Positions 11,945 through 42,859 of a stretch of 42,859 bases of DNA are shown here, piece by piece (the stretch's first letter is position 1; the number at the start of each line of letters is the position of its first letter). Origin of the DNA: Paraglomus occultum (taxonomy: Eukaryota; Glomeromycota; Glomeromycetes; Paraglomerales; Paraglomeraceae); NCBI GenBank assembly GCA_910592205.1, contig CAJVPJ010000121.1:1-42859 (forward strand). The letters are read 5' to 3'. The notes under the pieces were generated by a model. That model saw nothing but the letters and a program-made list of their open reading frames with translations. It was not told the DNA's origin and did not search any database. The translations under genes and the position numbers were made by a program.

Positions 11945-11996
11945 AGAATTTGACATTTGAGTTGTCAGTCCTCGTAAACTGTCACAATTATTGACA

Positions 11997-14900
11997 ATGG
12001 ACTTCCTGACAAGAGGTTATAAGGGCTTATTAGGTGAAAAAGGTCAACCACAGACGGCAGAAGATACTGTGATTAAGTTATGTGACAGAGCGGCGAATTC
12101 CACTCTTCTTGAAGACAGGAGGGCTGCTATTCTGGGACTCAAAGGGTTGTCCAGAGAGTACAAACTGGTAAAGAACTTATTGATGTTGATTTCACGTTGC
12201 GCGTTTACAGTATATACTGAACAGAGATGCTTTCTTATACTTCAAGGAAGTAGGCGATAAAGGATTGGGCGTGCTGTTGAAGATATTGAGTGAGGATAGA
12301 GCAGACATCGATACAGCAAAAGCTATTCTCGAGATTCTGAATATATTATGTGCACCAGATAGAGTAGAGGTTGGTTGAATGTAATTTGCTAAGAATATGT
12401 CCATTATGTTATAAAGAGAACGAATCATAATTGATCTATAGGATGTAGGAAGAGATCTTGGACTACGATTCACTGATGAAGTTTTGCAAGTAAGCATAAA
12501 CAATTATACGTCGGAATTGGTCTTAGCGTAGTCGTCACAGTTAAATTTACCTCATTTGTAACTTACTGACTCGGGAATTCGTTCTTTATTGATAGGATGA
12601 ATCACATATACATCTGTTCCTTGATCTCCTCCAAGAAGTCGACTTTTATGTTAGGTTCCACGATATTCAATTGCTCGCTACCCTACTGACAACAAGACCG
12701 GATAGAGTACAGGACTATATCTTGACAGCACCTATGGGAATATCTAGACTAATGGATTTATTGGATGACCATCAAGAGGTTATACGGAACGGTTAGTGTG
12801 ACGATAATTCGCTTTTACTGCATTGTTATTGAATAGTAAACAAAACAATTAACGTTCATAAACTTTAGAGGGTCTACTACTTTTGATCTCATTGACAGAG
12901 ACCAACGCAGATATTCAAAAGATTGTCGCGTTTCAAAATGCATTTGATAGATTGTTAGAGATTATTACTGCGGAAGATGGTTTGAATGGAGGAATTATAG
13001 TTCAAGATTGTTTACAATTGACGCTGAACTTATTGCGTTATAATGTCTCCAACCAGGTTAGGATAGTCGTATTCAAGCAATTAAATGAGCGTTTCTACAT
13101 TTATGCATGATTGAGTATTATCGCGTCTTTAACTAACATGACGTTTTACAATTTAAAGAATTATTTTAGGGAAACAAGTTGCATACAGAGGATATCTGGA
13201 TTACTGGGATATCCATCTACGTCAGAAGATAATGTTATCGATTATCATTTTTCGGATTGGCATGATCAAGGAACGAACAACATTCTCGTGTTATTGGAGC
13301 TCGTCAGAATACTCGTTGCCCCAAATAACACCAACACAACAACAAATCAAGTAAGCACAAATTACCACCGTGTGGGCAGAATTAAAAGCTATAGGGTGTG
13401 ATTGACGCATGTGCGTTCAAGAAGCACAACACAGCATAACAATACATGTACGCATGTTAGAATCTAAAGGTTTTTGTATTCCTTACAGCGTGTAATGAAC
13501 CAATGTGGGATGTTAAAACCTGTGATTGAACTTGCATTGGCCTCCAATGCCCCCTCTCCAGCGAAAACACAAGTACGTGATATTCCTTTCGCTATTCTCT
13601 TTGTATAACGAAAGTGTTCTATTTTTTCGAGTATTGTATTTATTGTTTGATCTTGTATCTGTCTTTTATTCTGCGGGCTTTTTCTATTACCGCTTTAGGC
13701 ATTCTATGCTTTAGGCGATCTTGTACGCGCAAATCAAACAAATCAAGAAGTGTTGGCGAGAGCGCGTGTAACCGTACCAATTCCAACTTACAGATCAAAT
13801 GAATCATCAACTTCACACTCTCGAACCACATCACAAAGCAGCGCGCATTTGTCGTTCCAAGAACAAGCGCAAGCAATGCCTCCTCGCTCAGCTATTATGG
13901 GCCTGATCGCTGTTGCCGTTGGAGCCGAACCCGAGAGTTATGGGACTAGAGCCGCTGCTACGTATGCGTTTGAGGTTAGACTCGATTGGGGAGTAGGGTC
14001 AAATTAGTGACTTTTGATAATTTTGTTGTGATGTCGTTATTATTTTTGTAGGCATATATAATGAGCAATGTGGAAGCGCAAGTCCTGCTTGCATCTTCTC
14101 TAGCACCTCAATCTGATGCTGCAAATAACTCTGATCAAATAACAGGTTATACAAATCTAAGCTTACATGTGCTAACTCAAACCCAATTCCATATACTTAC
14201 CTGTTTCTAATTGTTAACAGCGGGAGCGCAATCAGCCGGAACGCTGCTTCTAGCTGCCCTTCTGGAATGGGAAGATTCTGCTGCTGATCCATACGTTGTC
14301 TGGTTTGCTTCGGTGATATTCTCACACATTCTCTTGCATAACGAACGATCAAAAGACATAATTCGTGGTATTTACACCGCTGATGCCGATTCAACCGATG
14401 AGGGGGCACCGCTGTTGCAACTTATTGTAAAGAATTTGAATATTGCTAATAAGAATAACGCGGATGTGAGAGTCCTGATTGGATATCTGTGTTTGCTATG
14501 CGTGTGGCTATGGGATAGCCCAAAGAGCGTTGGTGATTTCCTGGCCGAGGAATCACATTTGCAGATGGTATCCTTTTCAACATCGATTAAATTGACGAAT
14601 TTTCCTGAGTCGCACGGGAAATTTGTGAAAACACGTTATTTGTGGTGGAACTATATATGCATATATTATTTATTTATTTATGTCCAATGTTTGCCTTAAC
14701 TGAAATGTCCGCTTAGTTGATTACTCTAGTCGCCCAATCGTCTAGTGTCGATCCACGTGTCCAGGGTCTTTGTGCGTTTTTATTGGGAGTATGTTATGAG
14801 TTCAATAATGAATTGGAGGGCTCTAATGTTTCGAGGTAAATAATACTGATATCAGGGATAAGTTGACAGCAATATATTAAAGTCAAAATTACTTTGTTTG

Positions 14901-15834
14901 ATAGGTCAACACTTTATCCTATTTTAATCAACCGCATCGGAATCGATTTATTTGTTAACCGTATCACACGGCTGCGTGAAGCACCACATTTTAAACATGC
15001 ATCACAGTACCTTTTTGTAAGTAAAATTAGTTTTGCGGCATTGACTGATGGCACAGAAATGACTACAATGACTGATTTGTTCAATCCATATAATCTAGAT
15101 CTCACCTAATGAACTTAAAGCTTTGCCTGACTTGTACTTCGATTACCAATTTGCGGAATTCTTTAAGGATAATTACGGTAAGTGAATGCTTTAACGGGCT
15201 TGTTTACCTTCTGCTCATTGCCAATATCACGATTCATGCATTCTGCTTTTTAGAAACCATTCAACGCTCTATTCGGGTCGATCCGAAAGCAACGCGATCG
15301 CCTCGTCATAGTACCGACACCAACGGCAACGATAACGACTCGTTTTCCTTATCTGCCATAACTTCTCTCAAAGGCGTAATCCAAACACAGGAAGCCCAAA
15401 TTAATGAACTAAAAGAGAAAATCAAACAGATGGAGCTTGAATCTAAGGTACGACTGTATAGCTTTTGACCATTGTAGTTATTTGTACAAGGAACTAATCG
15501 TATTGTCTTATGTTGTTGTCTCTGTTGTCATTAGAATTCTGTTGATAATGGCCCTGCATCAGTTGCACGACAAACGCTTGAATCGAACGATGAGAAATAT
15601 GCAATATTGGAGTCAAAATACATTGCGTTGGAGAACAAGTATGCACAGTTGAACAAAGAACACGAAGATCTACTTGAATGCCTTACTGAGCATGAGGAGA
15701 GTATTAATAAATACCGGACAAGGTTAATCGACCTCGGGCAGACTGTTACGGACGATGAAGAAGAGGAGGATGACGAAGAGGAGGATGACGAAGAGGAGGA
15801 AGAGGAGGAAGAGGAGGGAGAAGAAAAAGACTAG
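11997..15834 (+). CDS. USO1: Vesicle-tethering factor Uso1/p115
   Basis: Fifteen exons: 11997-12167, 12247-12369, 12442-12489, 12596-12791, 12869-13056, 13159-13350, 13489-13572, 13699-13974, 14052-14145, 14221-14567, 14717-14835, 14905-15016, 15099-15177, 15254-15447, 15535-15834 (840 aa, every phase closing). The first about 680 residues are the armadillo-type head of Uso1/p115: MDFLTRGYKGLLG, SREYKLEVGDKG, PMGISRLMDLLDD, QKIVAFQNAFDRLLEI, VQGLCAFLLGVCYEF and FVNRITRLRE are family hallmarks. A coiled coil (about 705-810) and a run of Asp/Glu closing the protein (about 814-840) follow, as in p115. The protein tethers COPII/COPI vesicles to cis-Golgi membranes with Rab1/Ypt1 and golgins, upstream of SNARE pairing. 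The tail is far shorter than in yeast Uso1 (about 1790 aa) and nearer animal p115 (about 960 aa). Start chosen at the ATG opening the conserved N-terminus. Confidence 0.95.
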
Positions 15835-16125
15835 TCTGATTTGTGGTAAAGAATTATGGGACATCTTATTTATATTATTGCCTAATACTTAACGAATCTT
15901 AGACTACCATTGTATTATTAATTTCTTCTGATGTATTATGCACTCTTTCATTTATATTAATTGGGCACGCATCAGATGCGTATGTTTTGTCACCATTAAT
16001 CGAAATTTGACGTTTAGAGTACTGCCGAGGATTATAACTATCGGCAATTTAATGAGTCGAATTGTTATATAGACTTGGATAATTTTATTACGGATAAATC
16101 TGATATTGATATTACAAACTTTCTA

Positions 16126-19100
16126 TTACAATTTGTCACCCAGTGTCTTAAGCAGTCCGGGTGCCTTTGTTTGTCCACTTGGCTTCCTTAGAAACGGATT
16201 TTCTAAAGAAATATAAATATAAGTTCATTGTGCTATCCAAACACGCCCCTTATCATGCACTTACTTCTATGCGAAGGGTCCGCCTTATGCGTTAAATTAG
16301 CTTTCTTGAATATCGGTGCTTCCTCTATGTGGTTATTTTCCTCATTCACATCCATCTCTTCAGCGTGTCGCTTTACGGTTTGGTTGGGCGCATCGTTATG
16401 CCGCGTTGTTGTTGCTTCATCCCCCATCATGACGTCAACGTCACCATCTTCTGTTGATCTGTGCGAAATTGGATTAATAAATATAATAAATACATAAGAT
16501 AAAAATGGTAACAAATTATGCTCATTTACTTTTCATGCTGAGGCGACATTTGCGGGCTATCCTGTACAGTGAGTGATGATGTATTTGTAGTTACTTGCAC
16601 TTCTGGTTGTTGCAGTGGCGGCTGTAACGGTATACGCTGCCGTGATGTGATTTTTAATGGAGGTTGTCTGCTTTCTTCTGTGCGATATGCCTGTTTTAAT
16701 CAATAGAAATAAATATGTTATACAATGATTTTACCATGGCCGAAGTTGTATTGAATTAAAATAATAACCTTATTCAATGCATTTATTCTCTCTGCCAGTT
16801 TCGCATAGTTATTATGCTGAGCAATCTTTATAGCAGCTTCTATTGTTGCCGGTGAGTTCAACAATGTCGCTAAATCATAGGCGCGCTCTATCTTTTCCGC
16901 TTTGCATGCCATCTGGGAGAACAGACACGTATTGAGAATGACGGTATTTTAAAACATCTATAACTTTTCGGATGTTGTTAAGTATACACGTACCTGAATA
17001 AGCTGTAGTAAAATTTTATCGATCTCAGTGTACTTCTTACGGAACTCGAGTTGTCTTCGTCGGTACTCATTTCTAGCTTCTGCTTCCTGCTGTTCATAGT
17101 CTATCAAAGTGTTCATGCGCATATACCTGCAATATGAAATCATGTAAATAAAGTCAATAATGATAGATGATGTATATAGAATGAAGCCACTCACTTCTCT
17201 TCAAATTGGCCGATAGGTTTGTCAATTTGTAGTAACGGCATCTGGAAGCTAACTTCATCTATTGGTGGTCTTGGGAGCGAAGGATGCTCCTGTCCATCCT
17301 ATTATTGACACAATTTAATGTAAACATCGGGAAGACCGCTAGATTCTGACAGAAGTAAAGCAATTGGCCTAATATACCTTGCATTTTACACACATTAATT
17401 CCATGTCAAGTATTCCGACAGGCCAATACGTTACTGTCTTTCCTTCTTCTTTTGGTATCGTAGATGTATCCAATATTGGTATCCAGCGTGCCTGACGAGG
17501 CTCACGATGACGATGAAGAATGCTCAGAACTCCTTTTGAATCGTAAATGGCCGGTAACTCAATGATGACAAATAAATTTCAAGATAATAATGTTATTTTC
17601 CCACCGATCTAGCAACAGACAGATTTTTTTGCATGCTTACTCCATCTTGTGAAAAGTCCAGCCAATTCAAAACTGCTCCGGTTGATAATGGCAAGTGGCC
17701 GTCTTGAATAAAATCATGCGATTCAATATTATACAATATATATCCCAGGTTTTGTGATCCTAGCAACATAAATATTAGTGTAAAGTAGCAACTTACAGGT
17801 GACATATCTGAGCGTCGTATTATACCTTTCAGTCCTGGGCCTACATGGTAAATAAACATGGCAAATTCATCATTGGCTGTCATGCATACGATCGATGGTA
17901 GAGAAAAGACTTTTGTCTGAACTCCTCCACTTGAAAAAAATCGTATATAGTTCTTCGAGGTAGCCGCAATCGGACCTTTGCCACTCAAGGCCAAAGCTAA
18001 TATCGTAACCGGTATGCTCGCTTAGTAATCTAGGTTATCGTGATATAATGCATTCATAATTACCCGTCACGCATTCTCCTGATGGAAGTTCTAATGTCCA
18101 TTCGCCTCGTGAATTCCGTGTTTCTGGTTGGAATGAGATCACACTTGGACCACCAGTACTTGACTCGGCCGCAAATGCTGCTCCTTGCCTACCTGTATAA
18201 AATTTTGCATTTGCAATTAACGTGATTTGAACTTTTTGCTCTCAGTACGTAAATAACTAACCATTACATACCCAAGCAACCCATAGAAAAGTTGTACAAG
18301 TCAGTGAAATGGTACGGTCGACATACTGATTTGTCCAAGTATTCAACACTTACTGTCGAATGTGTTCCTTGATCGAGTGTTGTAATGCATCCTATCAAGT
18401 TGAATACTGGAAGAAAGTCCAAAACAGATTAGTAAAATCAGAACTGATTTTAACGGTAATATTCAACAAATTTGAATATATATCTGACCAAGATAGCGTG
18501 ATTTTTCCTTCTCCGGCGTCGATCCTGGCTGAAATGGTTTCTGGGGTGTACTGATGTCGACTGTAGATAGCATATACTTTTTCAGCCACAGGTTACATTC
18601 CATCGTATGGTTGATAATACAATAAAAACGACATACCATTAGATTTCCTATCCATTGCATACGCAGGCTTTTTAGGCACATACCCTGCACCATCGTCATC
18701 CTCAACAAAATCATCCAGATCAAAGTAATCATCTTTGTAATCATACTTGAGCCTGTTGCTTCTGCGTGGAGCTGTTGTATATGTGTCACTTATATGTGCG
18801 ACAATGAAATATGTAATGATTAAAACAACTACCATTTTTGTCTGCGTCTTCGCACTCTGCATCATCAATGCTGATGTTGAATATACGATCCAGTACAACA
18901 TCATCTTCCTCCATTGTGACACTTCCTTCATTTTCAATATCGTCAAAATCAAATGGCTCCCAGAAATATAAAGTTCCTTGCACGTCCACCTGTACGTGAC
19001 GATAAGCGGTAGGATTATATTTGATCCAGCAAGAAAAAACAATATTAACTTTCACGAATCAACAAGAACTTGTGCGATGAAAAAAATCCAATTTCTGGTG

Positions 19101-20680
19101 GAACGTGGTATGGCAATAAGCATGGTGGAAATTTTTCTTACGTATGCTATTTTCTTGCCATCTGGATGCCATGATAGACCAGTCACATGCGCTTTATGTC
19201 TTATTCTAAAATGTCGGATTGAATAAGTTACAATTCACATATATTATATGCTAATTGGTAATAGTTCACTTACTTCCATGAAGACTTCCTCTTTATTAAA
19301 TTCCAGATCATTATGTAACAGTCCAAACCCGCTGTGGCCAAATATCGTCCATTCGGTGACCATTGAAGGACGCATATATTCTGAATAACGACAATTTCAG
19401 TGAGCATGTACAAGTCAACATACGAGTGCTTAAATCATATACCTGTTTATGTTGATCTTTGAACATTATATTATATTTCCAAGTATTCTTATTGACAATG
19501 ACGACGTCTAGATAGAGCAAATATTAGCGTGATCCAATATTGATTTGCAAGTCTACCTCAACTTACCTTTATCATCTCCTGGAACAGCAAAACATTTCCC
19601 TGACGGATGCCACGCTATCTGACACGTCTGCGGGTCGCTATATCCAGAGTATAACTGTTTAGCATAACATTTTATTGATTCACAAACTGTAGCTACTCAT
19701 GATCTGACTTACCCTGGATCTGTGTGCGGAATTATGCCCAAAAAATGCTTAATGAAACGAGGCTCACCGTATCGCATGTCCCATACTCGAATAGTCCCGT
19801 CACAACTAGAAGAGACCTGCATTCACATAACCATTCCGCGAATTTTCAGGTCAATATATATTTGGACATTGGCGAGAAGGTAATGATAGTCACTCACCAA
19901 GAACTCTCCATCTGGATCAAACTCGACACACCTTACAGAATTCGTATGTCCTTTGACTACAACCACATCACTAATGTTTACCGTGTTGACTATCTGGATG
20001 GTCGAATCGCTAATAGAGAACGTTAATCCATCTCTGCTGATATTTAAAAGTCAGACCACAAAACTTCATTGCATACTTACTCTGAAGCCACGGCTACTCG
20101 TAAGCCATCCGTATTAAACGAAACATGTCTTGCAGGCAACGTACAGCGATACAGTAATGATTCAAATTTCTTGGTTGTCAGACTAAACAGCGCGACGGTC
20201 TTGTCTTCCGATGCAGTAACAAGCTTTCCATTCTGATGTTAAAAACGTGAATATAAATATATGGAATAAGCACAAATATCATACATGCAATATGTAAAAT
20301 TAAGTTATGTGTAAAATAATAACAACGTTTATCCCAATGCAGCGAATGCCCTTAGTATGATGAATAATGTTAATGGGTCTATCATCTATATTCCCGTTGG
20401 CCAAGACAAGAAAGAATCGAATTGCTCCATCTGCTCCAGCTGTAAGTAAGAAACTACGAAAAATCAAATCTTAGAATAATAATAATAATAATAATCAAAG
20501 ATTACGCATCCTTCCCTACACATACTTGCCGTCTTCGTTGTAACTAACGACAGTGTAGCCTTGTGTGTGTACTAAGAAGGAATCTATTCCCGGTTCTGGT
20601 ACTTCCCGTGCTTCTAGTTCCAGTCCAAACTCACTTTCTTCAGGTAATTCGGGAAAATCAAGATCAGATTGAGATCCCAT
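16126..20680 (-). CDS. CTF4: Replisome hub Ctf4/Mcl1/WDHD1 (AND-1)
   Basis: Twenty-three exons on the minus strand, listed 5' to 3': 20526-20680, 20327-20453, 20081-20232, 19898-20009, 19713-19816, 19567-19637, 19443-19507, 19274-19380, 19142-19205, 18833-18989, 18637-18771, 18489-18560, 18272-18406, 18064-18192, 17826-17996, 17641-17759, 17378-17557, 17195-17298, 16994-17126, 16769-16912, 16530-16690, 16265-16458, 16126-16202 (955 aa). N-terminal WD40 propeller to about residue 335 (LLTAGADGAIRFF, FDPDGEFLVSSSCDGTIRVW, SWHPDGKKIAY), an acidic linker (EEDDVV; DDFVEDDDG), the SepB region opening with KPFQPGSTP and containing SGGVQTKVFSLP and GAVLNWLDFSQDG, then the helical block around 720-812 with QMACKAEKIERAYDLA, and a charged tail. 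The family trimer links CMG helicase (GINS) to polymerase alpha-primase and other clients, and acts in cohesion and repair. The C-terminal HMG box of animal WDHD1 is absent, as in other fungi. The last intron is supported by the terminal exon restoring NPFLRKPSG. Confidence 0.95.
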
Positions 20681-23447: not shown

Positions 23448-25060
23448 GTATACATGTCTTAACATTGCTCTAATACATTTGTACATTTTGCGCTCAACTA
23501 CCAAAGATTCTTGAGATTGTAAAATTCATCGTGTCCTTTCAGTCTCAGTGAAGCGACGCTGTTTTTTGAGCGCCCGCAGCAGTTTTATTTCCGATTTTTT
23601 GAGAGATAAGTTGAGATGGGACATCATCCAGGGGGCGTGAATAGTGAGTTGTGGGGTTTACGCGTATTATTATATTGGTCACGGGCCAGAAATAATGTTA
23701 CGATGTGTCAGGTAACTTGGTTTAAGCACACGTCTTCAAAATTTTGGTAAAGTACTCCATTGGAAACTAATGTAGAGTAAACATGCTCTATAGTATATAT
23801 TTTATTGACATACAATAAAAGACTCGTTTCTGTTACTGTGCCAAGAATAACTTAAATGAATTTATCAATATTTTTGCAATTTGTTAGTGGGTTAGCATGG
23901 CATGGATAATCATTAGATCTAATCACATAAGAGAAGATACGCGTAAATTTTAAACAAGACTTTTGTGTAGAATAATGTATTCATGTTCCCATTATAAAAG
24001 CTTTTCTGTTACAAATCCCGTGGTCTTGATGTACTATAATTTTTTAGGCATTGTTGAACTCGGTCGAGTTGCAGGCTTACATCGCTCCCAACAGCTTTCA
24101 CATCACATCCCAAGACTTACCGAGGTTTTGCGCTGGGACCTAGCATGGGCCCCCTTCTTGGCTGTTTCTGCCAAAGACATGTTTGCAAACAAACAAGGAT
24201 AGAACACCTTGGGCTAATTGTAATTCAATGACAAAAGTTGCAGTTGTCTAGATTTACAAATGCTCAAAGATTTGAATTTTTTTATGTGATAATATAACTA
24301 CAATTTGTTTTAAATTTATAATAAACCCATATATATATAAATTCCCCATAACTAGTAAATCCTAATTTTAATTCAATGAACCCCCCAAAAAAATCTAATT
24401 GTAAGAGAATCCTGGTAGCTAAATATACATAAATACACTATAATAGATACAGAAAGGTTTACAATATAACCATAGAGACAATTCCTAATATTCAACCCAA
24501 CGTATGCGAGGACTTGCTACAAAGAGGGAGGCAAAAGAATTGAATAATAAGATGGATGGTTTGTTTTACATATTCAAACTGGTGAACAAACAAAATGCTA
24601 AAAAAAAACGCCAAAAGGATAGTGATCATCATGCAATTCATAAAGTAGAAGAACACGTCAAAGGGGAAAAGGAAACAAAAATAAAGATGAAAGAAGAAGA
24701 AATTGAGACGTATAAACAATGGTAAATGAAAAAGCTTTATACAAAATTACTATATATAAACACCTAATTGCTGTAAATGAAAACACGTCCCTGCTATTGT
24801 TGTATTTACTTTTGAAGAAAAACAAAAAAGAAACATGATGGTAATATGTATAAAAAAGAAAAAAGCACTGATGAAATTTTGTAAAACTACAAGAAAAGTA
24901 GAAAGATAACAAAAGGAAAGAAACCAACACAAAACATCATAATATTACCATCCCGAGAAAAAAAAAAGCGGAAACAATACTTGTGAATCTTCTTAATATG
25001 TTTAATCACCAAAACTTCCCAGTAATTTTATGCCATCTTTCGTAACCACATTATAAATCC
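23448..25060. other. Convergent intergenic region, no supported gene
   Basis: Lies between the 3' ends of the SANT/U-box and Grainyhead genes. A GC-richer patch at 24040-24200 is open for about 55 codons and a Lys/Glu-rich frame runs 24504-24725, but neither has family motifs or flanking exons. The rest is A/T-rich. Confidence 0.5.
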
Positions 25061-27374
25061 TTAAAATTTCAACGATAAAAGCACACCATCCTGCTCTACG
25101 GTATAGTCAATTTCCATGTCCTGTTCATCTTCAATCTGATGAATCAATTCATCGTCAACTCGCACATTAATCCCACGTTTAGTGTGTCGATGAACGCTTG
25201 AAACGGTTTGACCTTGTAAATCGAGCTTGTCAACAAGTTTGGCAATGAGGTCGGAAGCCGTCAATTGGTTAAGATAGATTGCACGGTAGACTGATTCATT
25301 GGGAAACTTGGCATAAATGCAAAGGACTGGATATAAAAATAAAAGGTGAGTAACAATTAATCAATTGCCTATGCAGTTGATTTTTCGACAACACTTTTTT
25401 TTTTCTTCACGCAAACTCACCAGCACGCTTCTTCCGTACAGGAATGTATGTTGGATCACAATCTAGAGCTTCCATGAAACTATCGGTTCCAACCGAAATT
25501 CGTCGTCGCTTGCCCAGATGCAAGGTCACCAATTCTCCGCCATCAGCGTCGGATTCTAAACTGTTGATCTGCTCTGCTAGATTTAGCACATCGCCATCAT
25601 CCGCTGCATCTGAATTACCCGTAATTTCATGGAACACTGTCACATTGGTAGGTTGTGCATACATCATCATCACTGGCGTCGTTTCTTGTGATTTGACTTT
25701 GAAACAAAAACAAACAGTAAGAATTTATGGTAAAAAGTGACCAAAAAAGAAAATTTTCAACGTTCCGTAAAATAGTACCTCTCATTTTATCACACATTTT
25801 GTCCAGGTGTTTCTGGTCATCCTTATATTTACGTTCCGCTCCTTTGTCCCTAAAGAGCTTAATCTTGGCAAACGATTTCTCTAGCGATTGTTCGCTTTCG
25901 CTCTTGGTTTCAACATGCACTCGAAGCGGAATGCCTTTGACACCCTTTATGCGCGAAAAGTCTGTCGACAAGCAGTTAAACTTCACCAGTATCTTTGCGG
26001 GTTTTTTACCGTTCCATTGGAATTGTACACGATCAAAGGACTTTGTCTCCACATTTCTTATGCCCGAAGATGCGGCCTTGTCTATTATTACACACATTGT
26101 ATGATTATTTAGTGTTGTGGGATAACAAAGAATCAACAATGTCATAAACAGATGGTAAATCTGTATGTACATACCAATATCAATAGCCCGAGCAGTTTTG
26201 GGTGACGCTTGCTGGCTCAGCCAGAAAGTCCAATATGATGACGCTACTTTGCGATGAGCTTCATCATGGAACATTACTTTGATAATCGTTGTAAAATCGG
26301 CATCGGTCTTTTCCTGATCTTGCAATATGACACAATAGTATTGACCTGATGTAAAAGAAGATTGCTTCAAGTCAGTATGCAACCGTTGGGGGGGGGGGAA
26401 GAGTCGAAAATCAAGAGCAAAGTTGGAGAATGTACCTTTATTGAGGTAAGTTATCGGTGTTTCATCAATGCGCTGGGCCGCAGCTGTGGGTGCTTCTAAA
26501 ACAACTTCGAATCGTAAATTCCTATTAAACGCGCAAATAGGGTGAGCGTCGGGTAAATTTGAGAATCGCACTCTCTGGAAACGTATGCCCTTCTTGCTTT
26601 CTCAATATCAAACTCTTTTCCGGCAAGTAAAATCTTGTTACTTACGAGCTAGGTTGATTGATGCTCGCCGGTGGAGATGGAATAGTAACAGGCTGAGGGT
26701 TATTCTGATAATTAGACGAAACTTCCTGTGGTGGCTGGGCATGATCCAATGGAGGCGAATGATGATACGTTGAATGGTGCTGAGAGATGTGATGCGACAT
26801 ATGATAATCGTTGTTGTTATTCCCGTTATTGAGGGAATTTATTGGACTGAGGGAAGGTATAGGACTGAGTGACGATTGAGAATTGACGGTTGGTAGGGGA
26901 TTGGACAACATTTGATTATGATTTATTATAGAATGGTTCGGATGCGGGTCATGAATGTCGTGTTTGTAAAGAGATTGATGGGGAGGGTGAGGTCTGCTTT
27001 TCGACGTAAACGGATAAATGGTAGGATTAGTTTACGAGCAACAAGATTCGAGCACTAGAGCACGGTCAATTATTTTTCAATTGGGCATAAAAGCGCTCCT
27101 TGATAATAAAGCATACTTACGGGTGCTGTTGATAGGTGCCAGGACCAAAGTGTGAATGCAGGCTCCCAAAGTTATTGGAATGCATATGTGAAGAAGCCAG
27201 GGGCAAAATCATGCTGCTAAATGCAAAGAAAGCATGGTTAAAATTAACGTTAGTCGTGTGTGGACCATAAATACGTGTAGTCTTTTGTTGTTGTTGTTCC
27301 CGTTGTTTTTACGGCTATTGGTTAGGACACCAACACATCAATGATAGCAAGCTTTACCTGTTGTCATAAGGCAT
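25061..27374 (-). CDS. Grainyhead/CP2-family transcription factor
   Basis: Eight exons, 5' to 3': 27358-27374, 27216-27... ending 27121 (27121-27216), 26646-26996, 26436-26572, 26175-26345, 25779-26081, 25421-25696, 25061-25326 (538 aa, phases closing). Residues 1-154 are a disordered His/Ser/Pro/Asn-rich region (HPNHSIINHN; NNGNNNNDYH). The CP2/Grainyhead DNA-binding domain follows at about 155-360: RFEVVLEAPTAAAQRIDETP, ITYLNKGQYYCVILQD, VMFHDEAHRK, YWTFWLSQQ, FDRVQFQWNGKKPAKILVKF, STDFSRIKGVKGIPLRVHVE. The C-terminus (about 452-538) is a ubiquitin-like dimerisation region (VLCIYAKFPNESVYRAIYL, DMEIDYTVEQDGVLLSLKF). Animal members control epidermal barrier genes; a Neurospora member has been linked to cell-wall remodelling and conidial separation, so a wall-related role is a fair guess. 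The short first coding exon (17 nt) carries only MPYDN plus two bases. Exon 3 has a NAGNAG acceptor (26993 or 26996). Confidence 0.92.
26388..26398 (+). repeat. G11 homopolymer inside a Grainyhead intron
   Basis: Eleven consecutive G on the plus strand, that is C11 in the transcript, in the 90-nt intron between exons 4 and 5. Unusual in this AT-rich sequence. Confidence 0.85.
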
Positions 27375-41426: not shown

Positions 41427-42853
41427 TTAATCGTCACTACTAGTAATGTCCGCATCTTCGCCTTCGTCTCTATTCCGTGTTGGATTGGAAGCAAACGGCG
41501 ACGTAAGATCGCTTTCTTCAAGTCTACGCATGATAATACAGAGTTGCAGTTGAAACGTGAGTCGTAGACACTTAATAAGAATCCGAATAAATGACATGTT
41601 ACACTTACTTTCTAAACTCGTAGCCTCCTTGCCCGTCAAATCGAAGAAGCCATTCGTGATATTTAACTAAAAAGTCACGTCAGTTAAGTATCAAATAGAG
41701 CCAGGACTAAAGCAAAGTTAATGTAATAATCTTAAGACTTACACTATAATTTCACGCAAGTAATATTTTCAAATTGTAGAGAGCATATTTATTAGTATTG
41801 TCATTTCGAGAAATATAAATTTAAGTCTGATGATTCGTTACATACCAATGAGACGCGATGAGAGACTGTGAACAGAGTGATTCCTAGTTCACGAGCGTGT
41901 GTGTACATAAGCCCTTCCACATCAATACTCACTGCACTTGTGCATTCGTCTAGTATTGCCTATATATTATGTACATCGTTAACAAACGCGTCGTGATATT
42001 AAATAGTGCTCAAATACGAATACATGTGGAACAAAACAAAGCTTACAAATTGTGGTCGATGATAGAATAGTCTTGCCATAGCTACTCTCTATTGCCCGAA
42101 AAAGTATAAAAATTAGTGGGTTAAAATTGACTAGTAAAATGTAAACCCCCATATAAAATAATCACGATACCTGTTTCTCTCCCCCAGATAATACATCAGC
42201 CCAATCCTGAACAGCATCCCATCCACCTTCTCGATTAACTATGTAGCCTAGATGGACAACATTCAGTAAATCCATCAATTTAGTATCATCATATCCCTTC
42301 ATGCGTGCTTGTGTCTTTGTGTCTGGGTATATAACCTGCCAGTATCAAAAAACAAGTTAGCACGTTTAACGAATCAAAATCTATGGAAAATGGACATGTT
42401 TGTGCCACGACATTTTTACCTGATCGCGAAAAGTACCCAAGGCCAAGTAAGGCTTTTGAGGTACATAGAACAACTGCGATGCTGACGGTTTGGTGACATT
42501 GCCGTCTATATAAAAACCATAATTTAGTACATGATAATATCACTTAGAGAATTAGATATTGTTAATTCCATTACGCAGAAACTTCCTTCATCAAACGTAA
42601 TAGTCTAGTCTCTCTTTTCTGAAATTACGAGATCAAACATAAATTAATGACTAACCAAACAATGGCCACAGATCCCCGAGAATTCGGAAAAGCGAAGACT
42701 TGCCCTACAACGAGGCAATATACGTCGATTAGTTAGCTGTTGCTTTAATTAATACATAGCCTACTTGAAAACAAATGCAACTCTTACGCAGCCATTAGGG
42801 CCTGATATCAGACAGTTCATCCCCTTTTCAACTTTGAATGACATTCCTCTCAC
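41427..42853 (-). CDS. Peroxisomal ABC subfamily D half-transporter (PXA/ALDP type), 3' part
   Basis: C-terminal nucleotide-binding domain only; the gene continues beyond the right edge. Exons 5' to 3': 42788-42853, 42656-42704, 42420-42505, 42171-42335, 42047-42088, 41846-41959, a one-base exon at 41743, 41609-41666, 41427-41523 (225 aa in the window). Walker [15 protein letters not shown] is split by an intron after GPNGC, the Q-loop is [20 protein letters not shown], the ABC signature LSGGEKQRVAMARL, Walker [13 protein letters not shown] and the switch [24 protein letters not shown] and [16 protein letters not shown] are typical of ABCD proteins, which import very-long-chain acyl-CoA into peroxisomes for beta-oxidation as dimers. 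The family normally has an N-terminal six-helix membrane domain, which must lie outside. The 42853 exon start directly follows an AG at the window edge. Confidence 0.93.
41743..41743 (-). other. Putative single-nucleotide micro-exon of the ABCD gene
   Basis: Joining 41846-41959 straight to 41609-41666 by the only GT...AG signals loses the frame by one base. Inside that 179-base gap, the minus strand reads ATTATAG, T, GTAAGTC: an acceptor, one base, and a perfect donor. Splicing it in gives introns of 102 and 76 nt, within the normal range here, and codes S-L-F-K-Y-H where ABCD proteins have S-L-W-K-[YFH]-H. Confidence 0.6.
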
Positions 42854-42859
42854 CTATTT

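What the first reader, a model, noticed from the sequence alone, without database searches (positions are those of the whole stretch)
41667..41845. Candidate one-nucleotide exon in the ABCD transporter gene
Seen: every other junction of this gene closes in phase, but the gap 41667-41845, taken as one GT-AG intron, puts the conserved end ([17 protein letters not shown]) out of frame by exactly one base. The gap is also longer than its neighbours and contains AG-T-GTAAGT at 41743. Including that single T fixes the frame and places Phe at the aromatic position of the SLWKYH motif. Known: one-base exons are extremely rare (a case is reported in Arabidopsis APC11). Alternatives are a one-base deletion or assembly error at the donor (TTGGTATGT), or a non-canonical splice giving Val instead of Phe.
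Basis: partly seen in the sequence, partly recalled or inferred. Interest (0 to 1): 0.75.

Follow-up and report, generated by a model that had tools for sequence, protein, structure and literature searches.

The report
One-base exon in mycorrhizal fungus gene
A peroxisomal transporter gene of an arbuscular mycorrhizal fungus seems to hold an exon of a single DNA letter, and the one-letter gap that it fills recurs at the same spot in published gene models of related fungi, though no RNA has yet shown it.

Summary
The window is a Paraglomus occultum (Glomeromycota) contig and the minus-strand gene an ABCD3/PMP70 orthologue. Joining 41846 to 41666 leaves the conserved C-terminus one base out of frame. 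A gene finder trained on 106 kb of this genome, this junction left out of its splice matrices, chose the one-base exon T41743 in three of three settings: introns of 102 and 76 nt, protein HRVSL-F-KYHEW.

It is a very weak site, and 0 of 231 listed homologues have one extra residue there.

An assembly error is nearly excluded: 8 of 9 listed Glomeromycota ABCD3 gene models, from five orders, break at this junction; the five junctions upstream in the same domain are intact in 44 of 45 cases. Three models carry the same frame-shifted tail. So the one-base shortfall is conserved.

Best explanation: a one-nucleotide exon (0.85). No RNA and no DNA of relatives could be examined. Such exons are known (plant APC11 and VPS55, Fusarium CYP621A): a new, apparently very old, member of a known kind.

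The parts
41846..41959 (-). upstream coding exon, ends ...FTVSHRVSL at a phase-0 donor TTG|GTATGT
   Evidence: translation and homology; donor at the 80th-85th percentile of predicted introns
41744..41845 (-). inferred intron A, 102 nt, GTATGT...TTATAG
   Evidence: branch-point-like TACTAAT with its A at about 41792, no AG between it and TATAG; acceptor weak (0-5.5 percentile)
41743..41743 (-). inferred one-nucleotide exon: T on the minus strand (A on +), first base of a TTT (Phe) codon
   Evidence: only base that closes the frame with two ordinary introns; best of 20 enumerated GT-AG closures; chosen by the gene finder in three of three settings
41667..41742 (-). inferred intron B, 76 nt, GTAAGT...TTTTTAG
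   Evidence: donor 37th-53rd percentile, acceptor 1-14th percentile; branch-point-like TTAAC with its A at about 41684
41609..41666 (-). downstream coding exon (TT)[19 protein letters not shown]
   Evidence: homology to ABCD3
41838..41845 (-). tandem donor GTAT|GTAA: the rival +4 donor cuts between 41842 and 41841
   Evidence: rival donor at the 0-2.3 percentile
41427..41523 (-). last coding exon, with stop codon TAA
42047..42859 (-). five further exons of the same gene (42047-42088, 42171-42335, 42420-42505, 42656-42704, 42788-42859 incomplete at the contig end)

Best explanation
The gap is two ordinary short spliceosomal introns separated by an exon of one nucleotide, T at 41743. Intron A (GTATGT...TATAG, 102 nt) and intron B (GTAAGT...TTTTTAG, 76 nt) abut at AG-T-GTAAGT. 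Because the two splice sites share one base they cannot both be occupied at once, so splicing should be sequential (inferred): removing B first leaves TATAG|TTTAAATATC, removing A first leaves TTGT|GTAAGT, and either order gives TCA TTG TTT AAA TAT CAC, i.e. HRVSL-F-KYHEW, with the ABCD3 length kept. Shown here: the one-base shortfall, the core, the site strengths, and that gene models of other Glomeromycota have the same shortfall at the same junction. Inferred: that the T is spliced in, that the core is shared by the relatives, and that it dates from before the split of the Glomeromycota orders.
For: Frame: the direct join is one base short; the exon T restores it. Exhaustive closure: of 20 GT-AG solutions the one-nucleotide exon scores best, 6.8 bits above the next even when charged 13 bits for an additional intron; the margin over the +4 donor is 5.6, 7.7 and 7.4 bits in three trained settings and 3.4 with 20 hand-defined introns only. 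Gene finder: chosen in three of three settings, and the only internal exon of 10 nt or less among 93 and 90 in the two strict settings. Lengths 102 and 76 are ordinary, 179 is rare. Spacing: 118 of 120 and 102 of 111 listed homologues have exactly one residue between SL and xYH/xHH, none has exactly one more. Relatives: 8 of 9 listed Glomeromycota ABCD3 models break here, in Paraglomerales, Archaeosporales, Glomerales, Diversisporales and Entrophosporales; the tails of P. brasilianum, F. geosporum and D. eburnea are compatible at 16 of 17 positions with [11 protein letters not shown]... read one frame over, against at most 10 of 17 in 3000 control segments. F. caledonium has the insert CKYEQSF exactly there, which can be encoded as T-GTAAGT-AYGA..., as if an annotator had read on from the one-base exon through its donor; a compatible tripeptide occurs 13 times in 206,599 residues.
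Against: No transcript, and no DNA of any relative, was available. Acceptor A is weak (0-5.5 percentile), although acceptor B, needed under almost every model, is little better (1-14). The branch-point-like TACTAAT lies 49 nt from its AG, farther than in most introns here. A core this good arises by chance in 0.1-1.5% of comparable stretches. In the loosest setting the finder predicts 8 internal exons of 10 nt or less among 148, and in the strict settings it misses the 42-nt exon 42047-42088 of this very gene. Glomus cerebriforme (P0242) has an unbroken model with one Val (SLVKYHEW), which may mean a lost intron, a shifted donor or a one-base exon G. Some of the broken models have other faults upstream (P0322, P0330, P0338).
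Confidence: 0.85

Rival explanations
1. Tandem donor: the spliceosome uses the GT four bases inside the usual donor (TTGGTAT|GTAACG) with the acceptor TTTTTAG, one 175-nt intron; the protein gains one residue (HRVSLVFKYHEW).
For: Canonical GT-AG, closes the frame. Alternative splicing at GYNNGY donors is documented: 0.58% of human and 0.77% of mouse coding GYNNGYs (PMC4267661, passages). Second-best of the 20 closures. It is not excluded by the conserved shortfall alone, because most strong donors contain a GT at +4.
Against: The site scores at the 0-2.3 percentile of this genome's donors, directly beside a donor at the 80th-85th. In the 20 hand-defined introns the four donors without G at +5 all follow CAG; this one follows TAT. 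0 of 231 listed homologues have one extra residue here. P0242 has one residue, not two. It leaves AG-T-GTAAGT and the intron length unexplained.
Confidence: 0.08
2. Sequencing or assembly error, or a one-base deletion private to this strain, at the donor.
For: One base is missing, and only one assembly could be looked at; no second copy of the region is in it.
Against: The congener P. brasilianum and two other genera have gene models with the same frame-shifted join, and five further models detour round the same junction. Independent errors at one junction in five orders are not credible.
Confidence: 0.02
3. Non-canonical splice after TTGG (donor TA), or direct splicing followed by a -1 ribosomal slip, either giving SL-V-KYHEW.
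For: Would give the single Val seen in the Glomus cerebriforme model.
Against: Needs a non-GT donor beside a strong GT donor. I see no classical slippery heptamer in TCATTGTTAAATATC (own reading, not a tool result). Leaves the core and the intron length to chance.
Confidence: 0.03
4. The direct join is the real mRNA and the C-terminus has truly shifted frame, or the gene is decaying.
For: Three published models read it that way (P0241, P0305, P0338).
Against: Those tails differ among species in the shifted frame but fit [11 protein letters not shown] at 16 of 17 positions in the normal frame, i.e. the normal frame is under selection; in P. occultum the rest of the reading frame in the window is intact.
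Confidence: 0.02

Closest known systems
Single-nucleotide exon of CYP621A in Fusarium (PMC12940212; parts 1 and 2 of 3 read)
   Same: Fungal nuclear gene, out-of-phase junction in a conserved motif, over-long intron (139 nt against a median of 56) with an AG-N-GT core, one base restores the frame, automatic gene models wrong at the junction.
   Different: There N is G, 20 orthologues in one genus (24 genes are spoken of), proved by RNA reads. Here N is T, a transporter of an early-diverging fungal phylum, the shortfall spans five orders, and there are no RNA data.
Single-nucleotide exon of APC11 in Arabidopsis (PMC4674806; part 1 of 3 read)
   Same: Constitutive one-base exon between two GT-AG introns, required for the frame.
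   Different: Plant; 422-nt gap; N is A; shown by cDNA and GFP reporters.
1-nt microexon of VPS55 in land plants (PMC8831610; passages only)
   Same: One-base exon with a GTRAGT donor, conserved over a very deep split, missing from reference annotations.
   Different: Plant; shown by RNA-seq and RT-PCR.
GYNNGY tandem donors (PMC4267661; passages only)
   Same: The donor here, GTATGT, contains a second GT at +4 that would also repair the frame.
   Different: The second site is very weak here and would add a residue that none of the 231 listed homologues shows.

Membership tests
single-nucleotide exon | reading frame across the gap fails without exactly one added base (mod 3) | tested here: met
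single-nucleotide exon | AG-N-GT core with flanking introns of ordinary length and splice sites within the genome's range | tested here: met
   102 and 76 nt; donors 80-85th and 37-53rd percentile; acceptors weak, 0-5.5 and 1-14 percentile
single-nucleotide exon | shortfall conserved in orthologues | tested here: met
   gene models (proteins only): 8 of 9 listed Glomeromycota models break here
single-nucleotide exon | AG-N-GT core conserved in orthologous DNA | tested here: inconclusive
   no relative's DNA reachable; indirect hint from the F. caledonium insert CKYEQSF
single-nucleotide exon | transcript containing the base, with two junctions | not testable with these tools
   no reads or cDNA at hand
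ABCD3 / PMP70 peroxisomal half-transporter | sequence family (TIGR00954; ABCD3 structures) | tested here: inconclusive
   TIGR00954 best family at E 1e-103, profile positions 472-660 of 660, but 348 bits against a cut-off of 918.9 meant for the full length; PDB ABCD3 8z9x E 1.9e-90 and ABCD1 about 1e-81; the listing's top hit is the two-domain plant ABCD1, 9wfg, E 1.5e-109 summed over two domains. The transmembrane half lies beyond the contig end.
GYNNGY tandem donor | second GY at +4 of usable strength | tested here: not met
   present, but at the 0-2.3 percentile of donors

The most novel reading that the evidence does not exclude
The one-nucleotide exon is a shared heirloom of the arbuscular mycorrhizal fungi: it arose before the orders of Glomeromycota split, has been spliced accurately ever since, and would be the first phylum-wide one-base exon outside land plants, with one lineage (Glomus cerebriforme) perhaps showing a different base or the loss of an intron.
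Probability: 0.65. Interest if true: 0.72.

Novelty: new member of a known kind. Interest (0 to 1): 0.62.

Why it matters
One-nucleotide exons put the exon-size limit at one base and test how a spliceosome can use an acceptor and a donor that share a single nucleotide. The cases found in print here are from plants and one ascomycete genus. A case kept across a fungal phylum would show that such an exon can be maintained stably over a very long time, and it makes order of splicing and fidelity testable in a short natural construct of about 350 bp. It also has a practical side: 8 of 9 listed published models of this gene in mycorrhizal fungi are wrong at this point, and recurrent breakage of unrelated gene models at one junction is a cheap screen for more such exons.

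Tried and rejected
Splice statistics: a first EM on candidate introns recovered 5 of 20 hand-defined introns and was dropped; a first gene finder without an intron cost overpredicted grossly, 747-1150 introns, 3-11 of 20 recovered, and was dropped; with an intron cost it recovered 19, 18 and 18 of 20 in its final rounds. In the two strict settings the +4 donor fell under the finder's donor threshold (0.03 and -0.18 against 0.5), so the finder could not choose it there; the enumerations put no threshold on it.

Control against my reading: 1 of 110 (also 1 of 105 and 1 of 172) predicted introns has an AG-N-GT as good as this one. It is 19579-19767 in a WDHD1/Ctf4-like gene, and the published model of that gene (P0121) codes straight through its first part, so the GT is the true donor of a normal exon and my finder was wrong.

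Relatives' DNA: genome contigs gave only ABC transporters of bacteria and archaea among the 80 loci listed; viral contigs gave none. In-genome paralogues on C997, C847 and C440 have no intron and no added residue here, so they show the normal spacing but not the origin of the introns. The 18S search (RF01960) did not complete. Literature search was too broad to be informative; one search listed one paper, not relevant here. Considered and rejected: upstream acceptors (a TGA lies in frame just before TTTTTAG) and longer micro-exons (5 or 23 nt; all score at least 22 bits below).

Full report
What the gene is. The minus strand of 41427-42859 encodes the ATP-binding half of an ABC subfamily D transporter of the ABCD3/PMP70 type: TIGR00954 is the best NCBIfam family, E 1e-103, over the last 189 of 660 profile positions, and solved ABCD3 chains match at about E 1e-90. 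The contig ends inside the gene. The transmembrane half was not found elsewhere in the 32.3-Mb assembly: searches with PF06472 and with a congener's full-length protein met only paralogues there. The organism is Paraglomus occultum, or a record so named: a WDHD1/Ctf4-like protein of the window matches '6831_t:CDS:10 [Paraglomus occultum]' at 90% identity over 100% of my model, and that record's contig is 42,859 bases long, the length of the window. Taxonomy: Glomeromycota, Paraglomerales.

The observation. Six other junctions of the gene close in phase; the join 41846/41666 does not, by one base. The conserved peptide [17 protein letters not shown] lies in the frame that needs one more base. 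Spacing is strict in this family: between SL and the xYH or xHH motif exactly one residue stands in 118 of the 120 listed homologues (the other two end before it) and in 102 of the 111 new ones. Of the nine others, eight are the Glomeromycota models described below, and one Rhizopus model (P0333) misses my pattern though it reads TSLIRHHEYLL. None has exactly one extra residue. Both lists are the best 120 rows of much longer hit lists (2601 and 7406).

Splice-site statistics. I defined 20 introns by homology in this gene and in three ABCD paralogues and trained a small gene finder on 106 kb, with the junction in question kept out of the splice matrices. In three of three settings it placed exons at 41846-41959, 41743 and 41609-41666. 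In the two strict settings this is the only internal exon of 10 nt or less (of 93 and 90); in the loose setting there are 8 among 148. The first donor is strong (80th-85th percentile), the donor after the T average (37th-53rd), the +4 donor very poor (0-2.3); both acceptors are weak (0-5.5 and 1-14). A 179-nt intron is rare here (4 of 110, 4 of 105, 5 of 173), while 102 and 76 nt are ordinary. Among 20 GT-AG closures in and around the gap the one-base exon is first, 6.8 bits ahead of the +4 donor although charged for a second intron; the margin is 5.6, 7.7 and 7.4 bits in the three settings and 3.4 with the 20 hand-defined introns alone.

Null. Equally good AG-N-GT sites turn up in 0.1-1.5% of shuffled or genomic stretches. 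One of 110 predicted introns had one; there the GT proved to be the true donor of a normal exon, because the published model codes through it. The core alone would therefore have left real doubt.

Relatives. The last protein search reached full-length ABCD3 models of Glomeromycota. In Paraglomus brasilianum the model runs HRVSL and then [19 protein letters not shown]; the direct join in P. occultum would read [19 protein letters not shown]. Funneliformis geosporum (HRHSL-LNIMSGFFALMEKE) and Diversispora eburnea (HRHSL-LNIMSGYLDLMEK) do the same. These tails can be encoded by DNA that reads [11 protein letters not shown]... in the neighbouring frame at 16 of 17 positions; 3000 control segments reach at most 10. 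Ambispora leptoticha skips to YHEW; Diversispora epigaea and one Entrophospora candida model skip to WLLRFDG; the other E. candida model skips more; Funneliformis caledonium inserts CKYEQSFL before KYHEW. Thus 8 of 9 models (7 of 8 species), in five orders (F. caledonium, D. epigaea and P. brasilianum placed by genus), are faulty at this junction. The five junctions upstream in the same domain are intact in 44 of 45 cases; the junction just downstream is also altered in four models (P0241, P0256, P0305, P0338), three of which are the frame-shifted ones. The models are not flawless elsewhere: P0322, P0330 and P0338 lack other pieces of the transmembrane half or linker. The exception at our junction is Glomus cerebriforme, SLVKYHEW. 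Part of these annotations come from an in-house GeneMark-ES pipeline (PMC11134847, passages; that these very records come from it is my inference from their naming), which can hardly be expected to propose a one-base exon.

Interpretation. A shortfall shared by five orders is not an assembly error, and selection plainly holds the KYHEW frame. Something adds one base, or four, to the mRNA. The one-base exon explains at once the frame, the family length, the over-long gap, the TACTAAT-TATAG and TTAAC-TTTTTAG arrangement and the AG-T-GTAAGT core. The F. caledonium insert can be encoded as T followed by GTAAGTAYGA, as if an annotator had entered at the same acceptor and read through the next donor; this is suggestive, not proof, since 96 of 384 encodings fit and I had no DNA. 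The +4 donor remains possible until RNA is seen.

Place among known things. One-nucleotide exons are in print for plant APC11 (PMC4674806, part 1 of 3 read) and VPS55 (PMC8831610, passages) and Fusarium CYP621A (PMC12940212, parts 1 and 2 of 3 read), the last calling itself the first fungal case. Searches (15 and 4 papers listed) showed none for an ABCD gene or for Glomeromycota; subscription journals are not covered. The P. occultum genome paper (PMC9453076, passages) describes a 44-Mb Illumina assembly and RNA data used for annotation; the assembly searched here has 32.3 Mb and may be another one.

Noticed in passing
window 16125-20680, minus strand: WDHD1/Ctf4-like gene of about 22 exons; the published model P0121 (Paraglomus occultum, contig of 42859 bases) identifies the window's organism.
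   Followed up: partly
window 42859 and beyond: The contig ends inside the ABCD3 gene; its transmembrane half was not found in the 32.3-Mb assembly.
   Followed up: partly
L029 (C997), L030 (C847), L031 (C440): Three further ABCD-type genes (Pxa2-like, Pxa1-like and a more distant one; labels by my reading), all without an intron at the SLxKYH position.
   Followed up: yes
proteins P0241, P0243, P0244, P0256, P0305, P0322, P0330, P0338: Public ABCD3 gene models of seven Glomeromycota species are mis-joined at the same junction; shared breakage of models could serve as a screen for other one-base exons.
   Followed up: yes
protein P0242 (Glomus cerebriforme): Unbroken model with Val at the position (SLVKYHEW): lost intron, shifted donor or a one-base exon G; not resolved.
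   Followed up: no
window 11961-15834 plus strand and 25060-26911 minus strand: Multi-exon genes that look to me like a Uso1/p115 tether and a CP2/grainyhead-type transcription factor (recalled resemblance, not searched).
   Followed up: no
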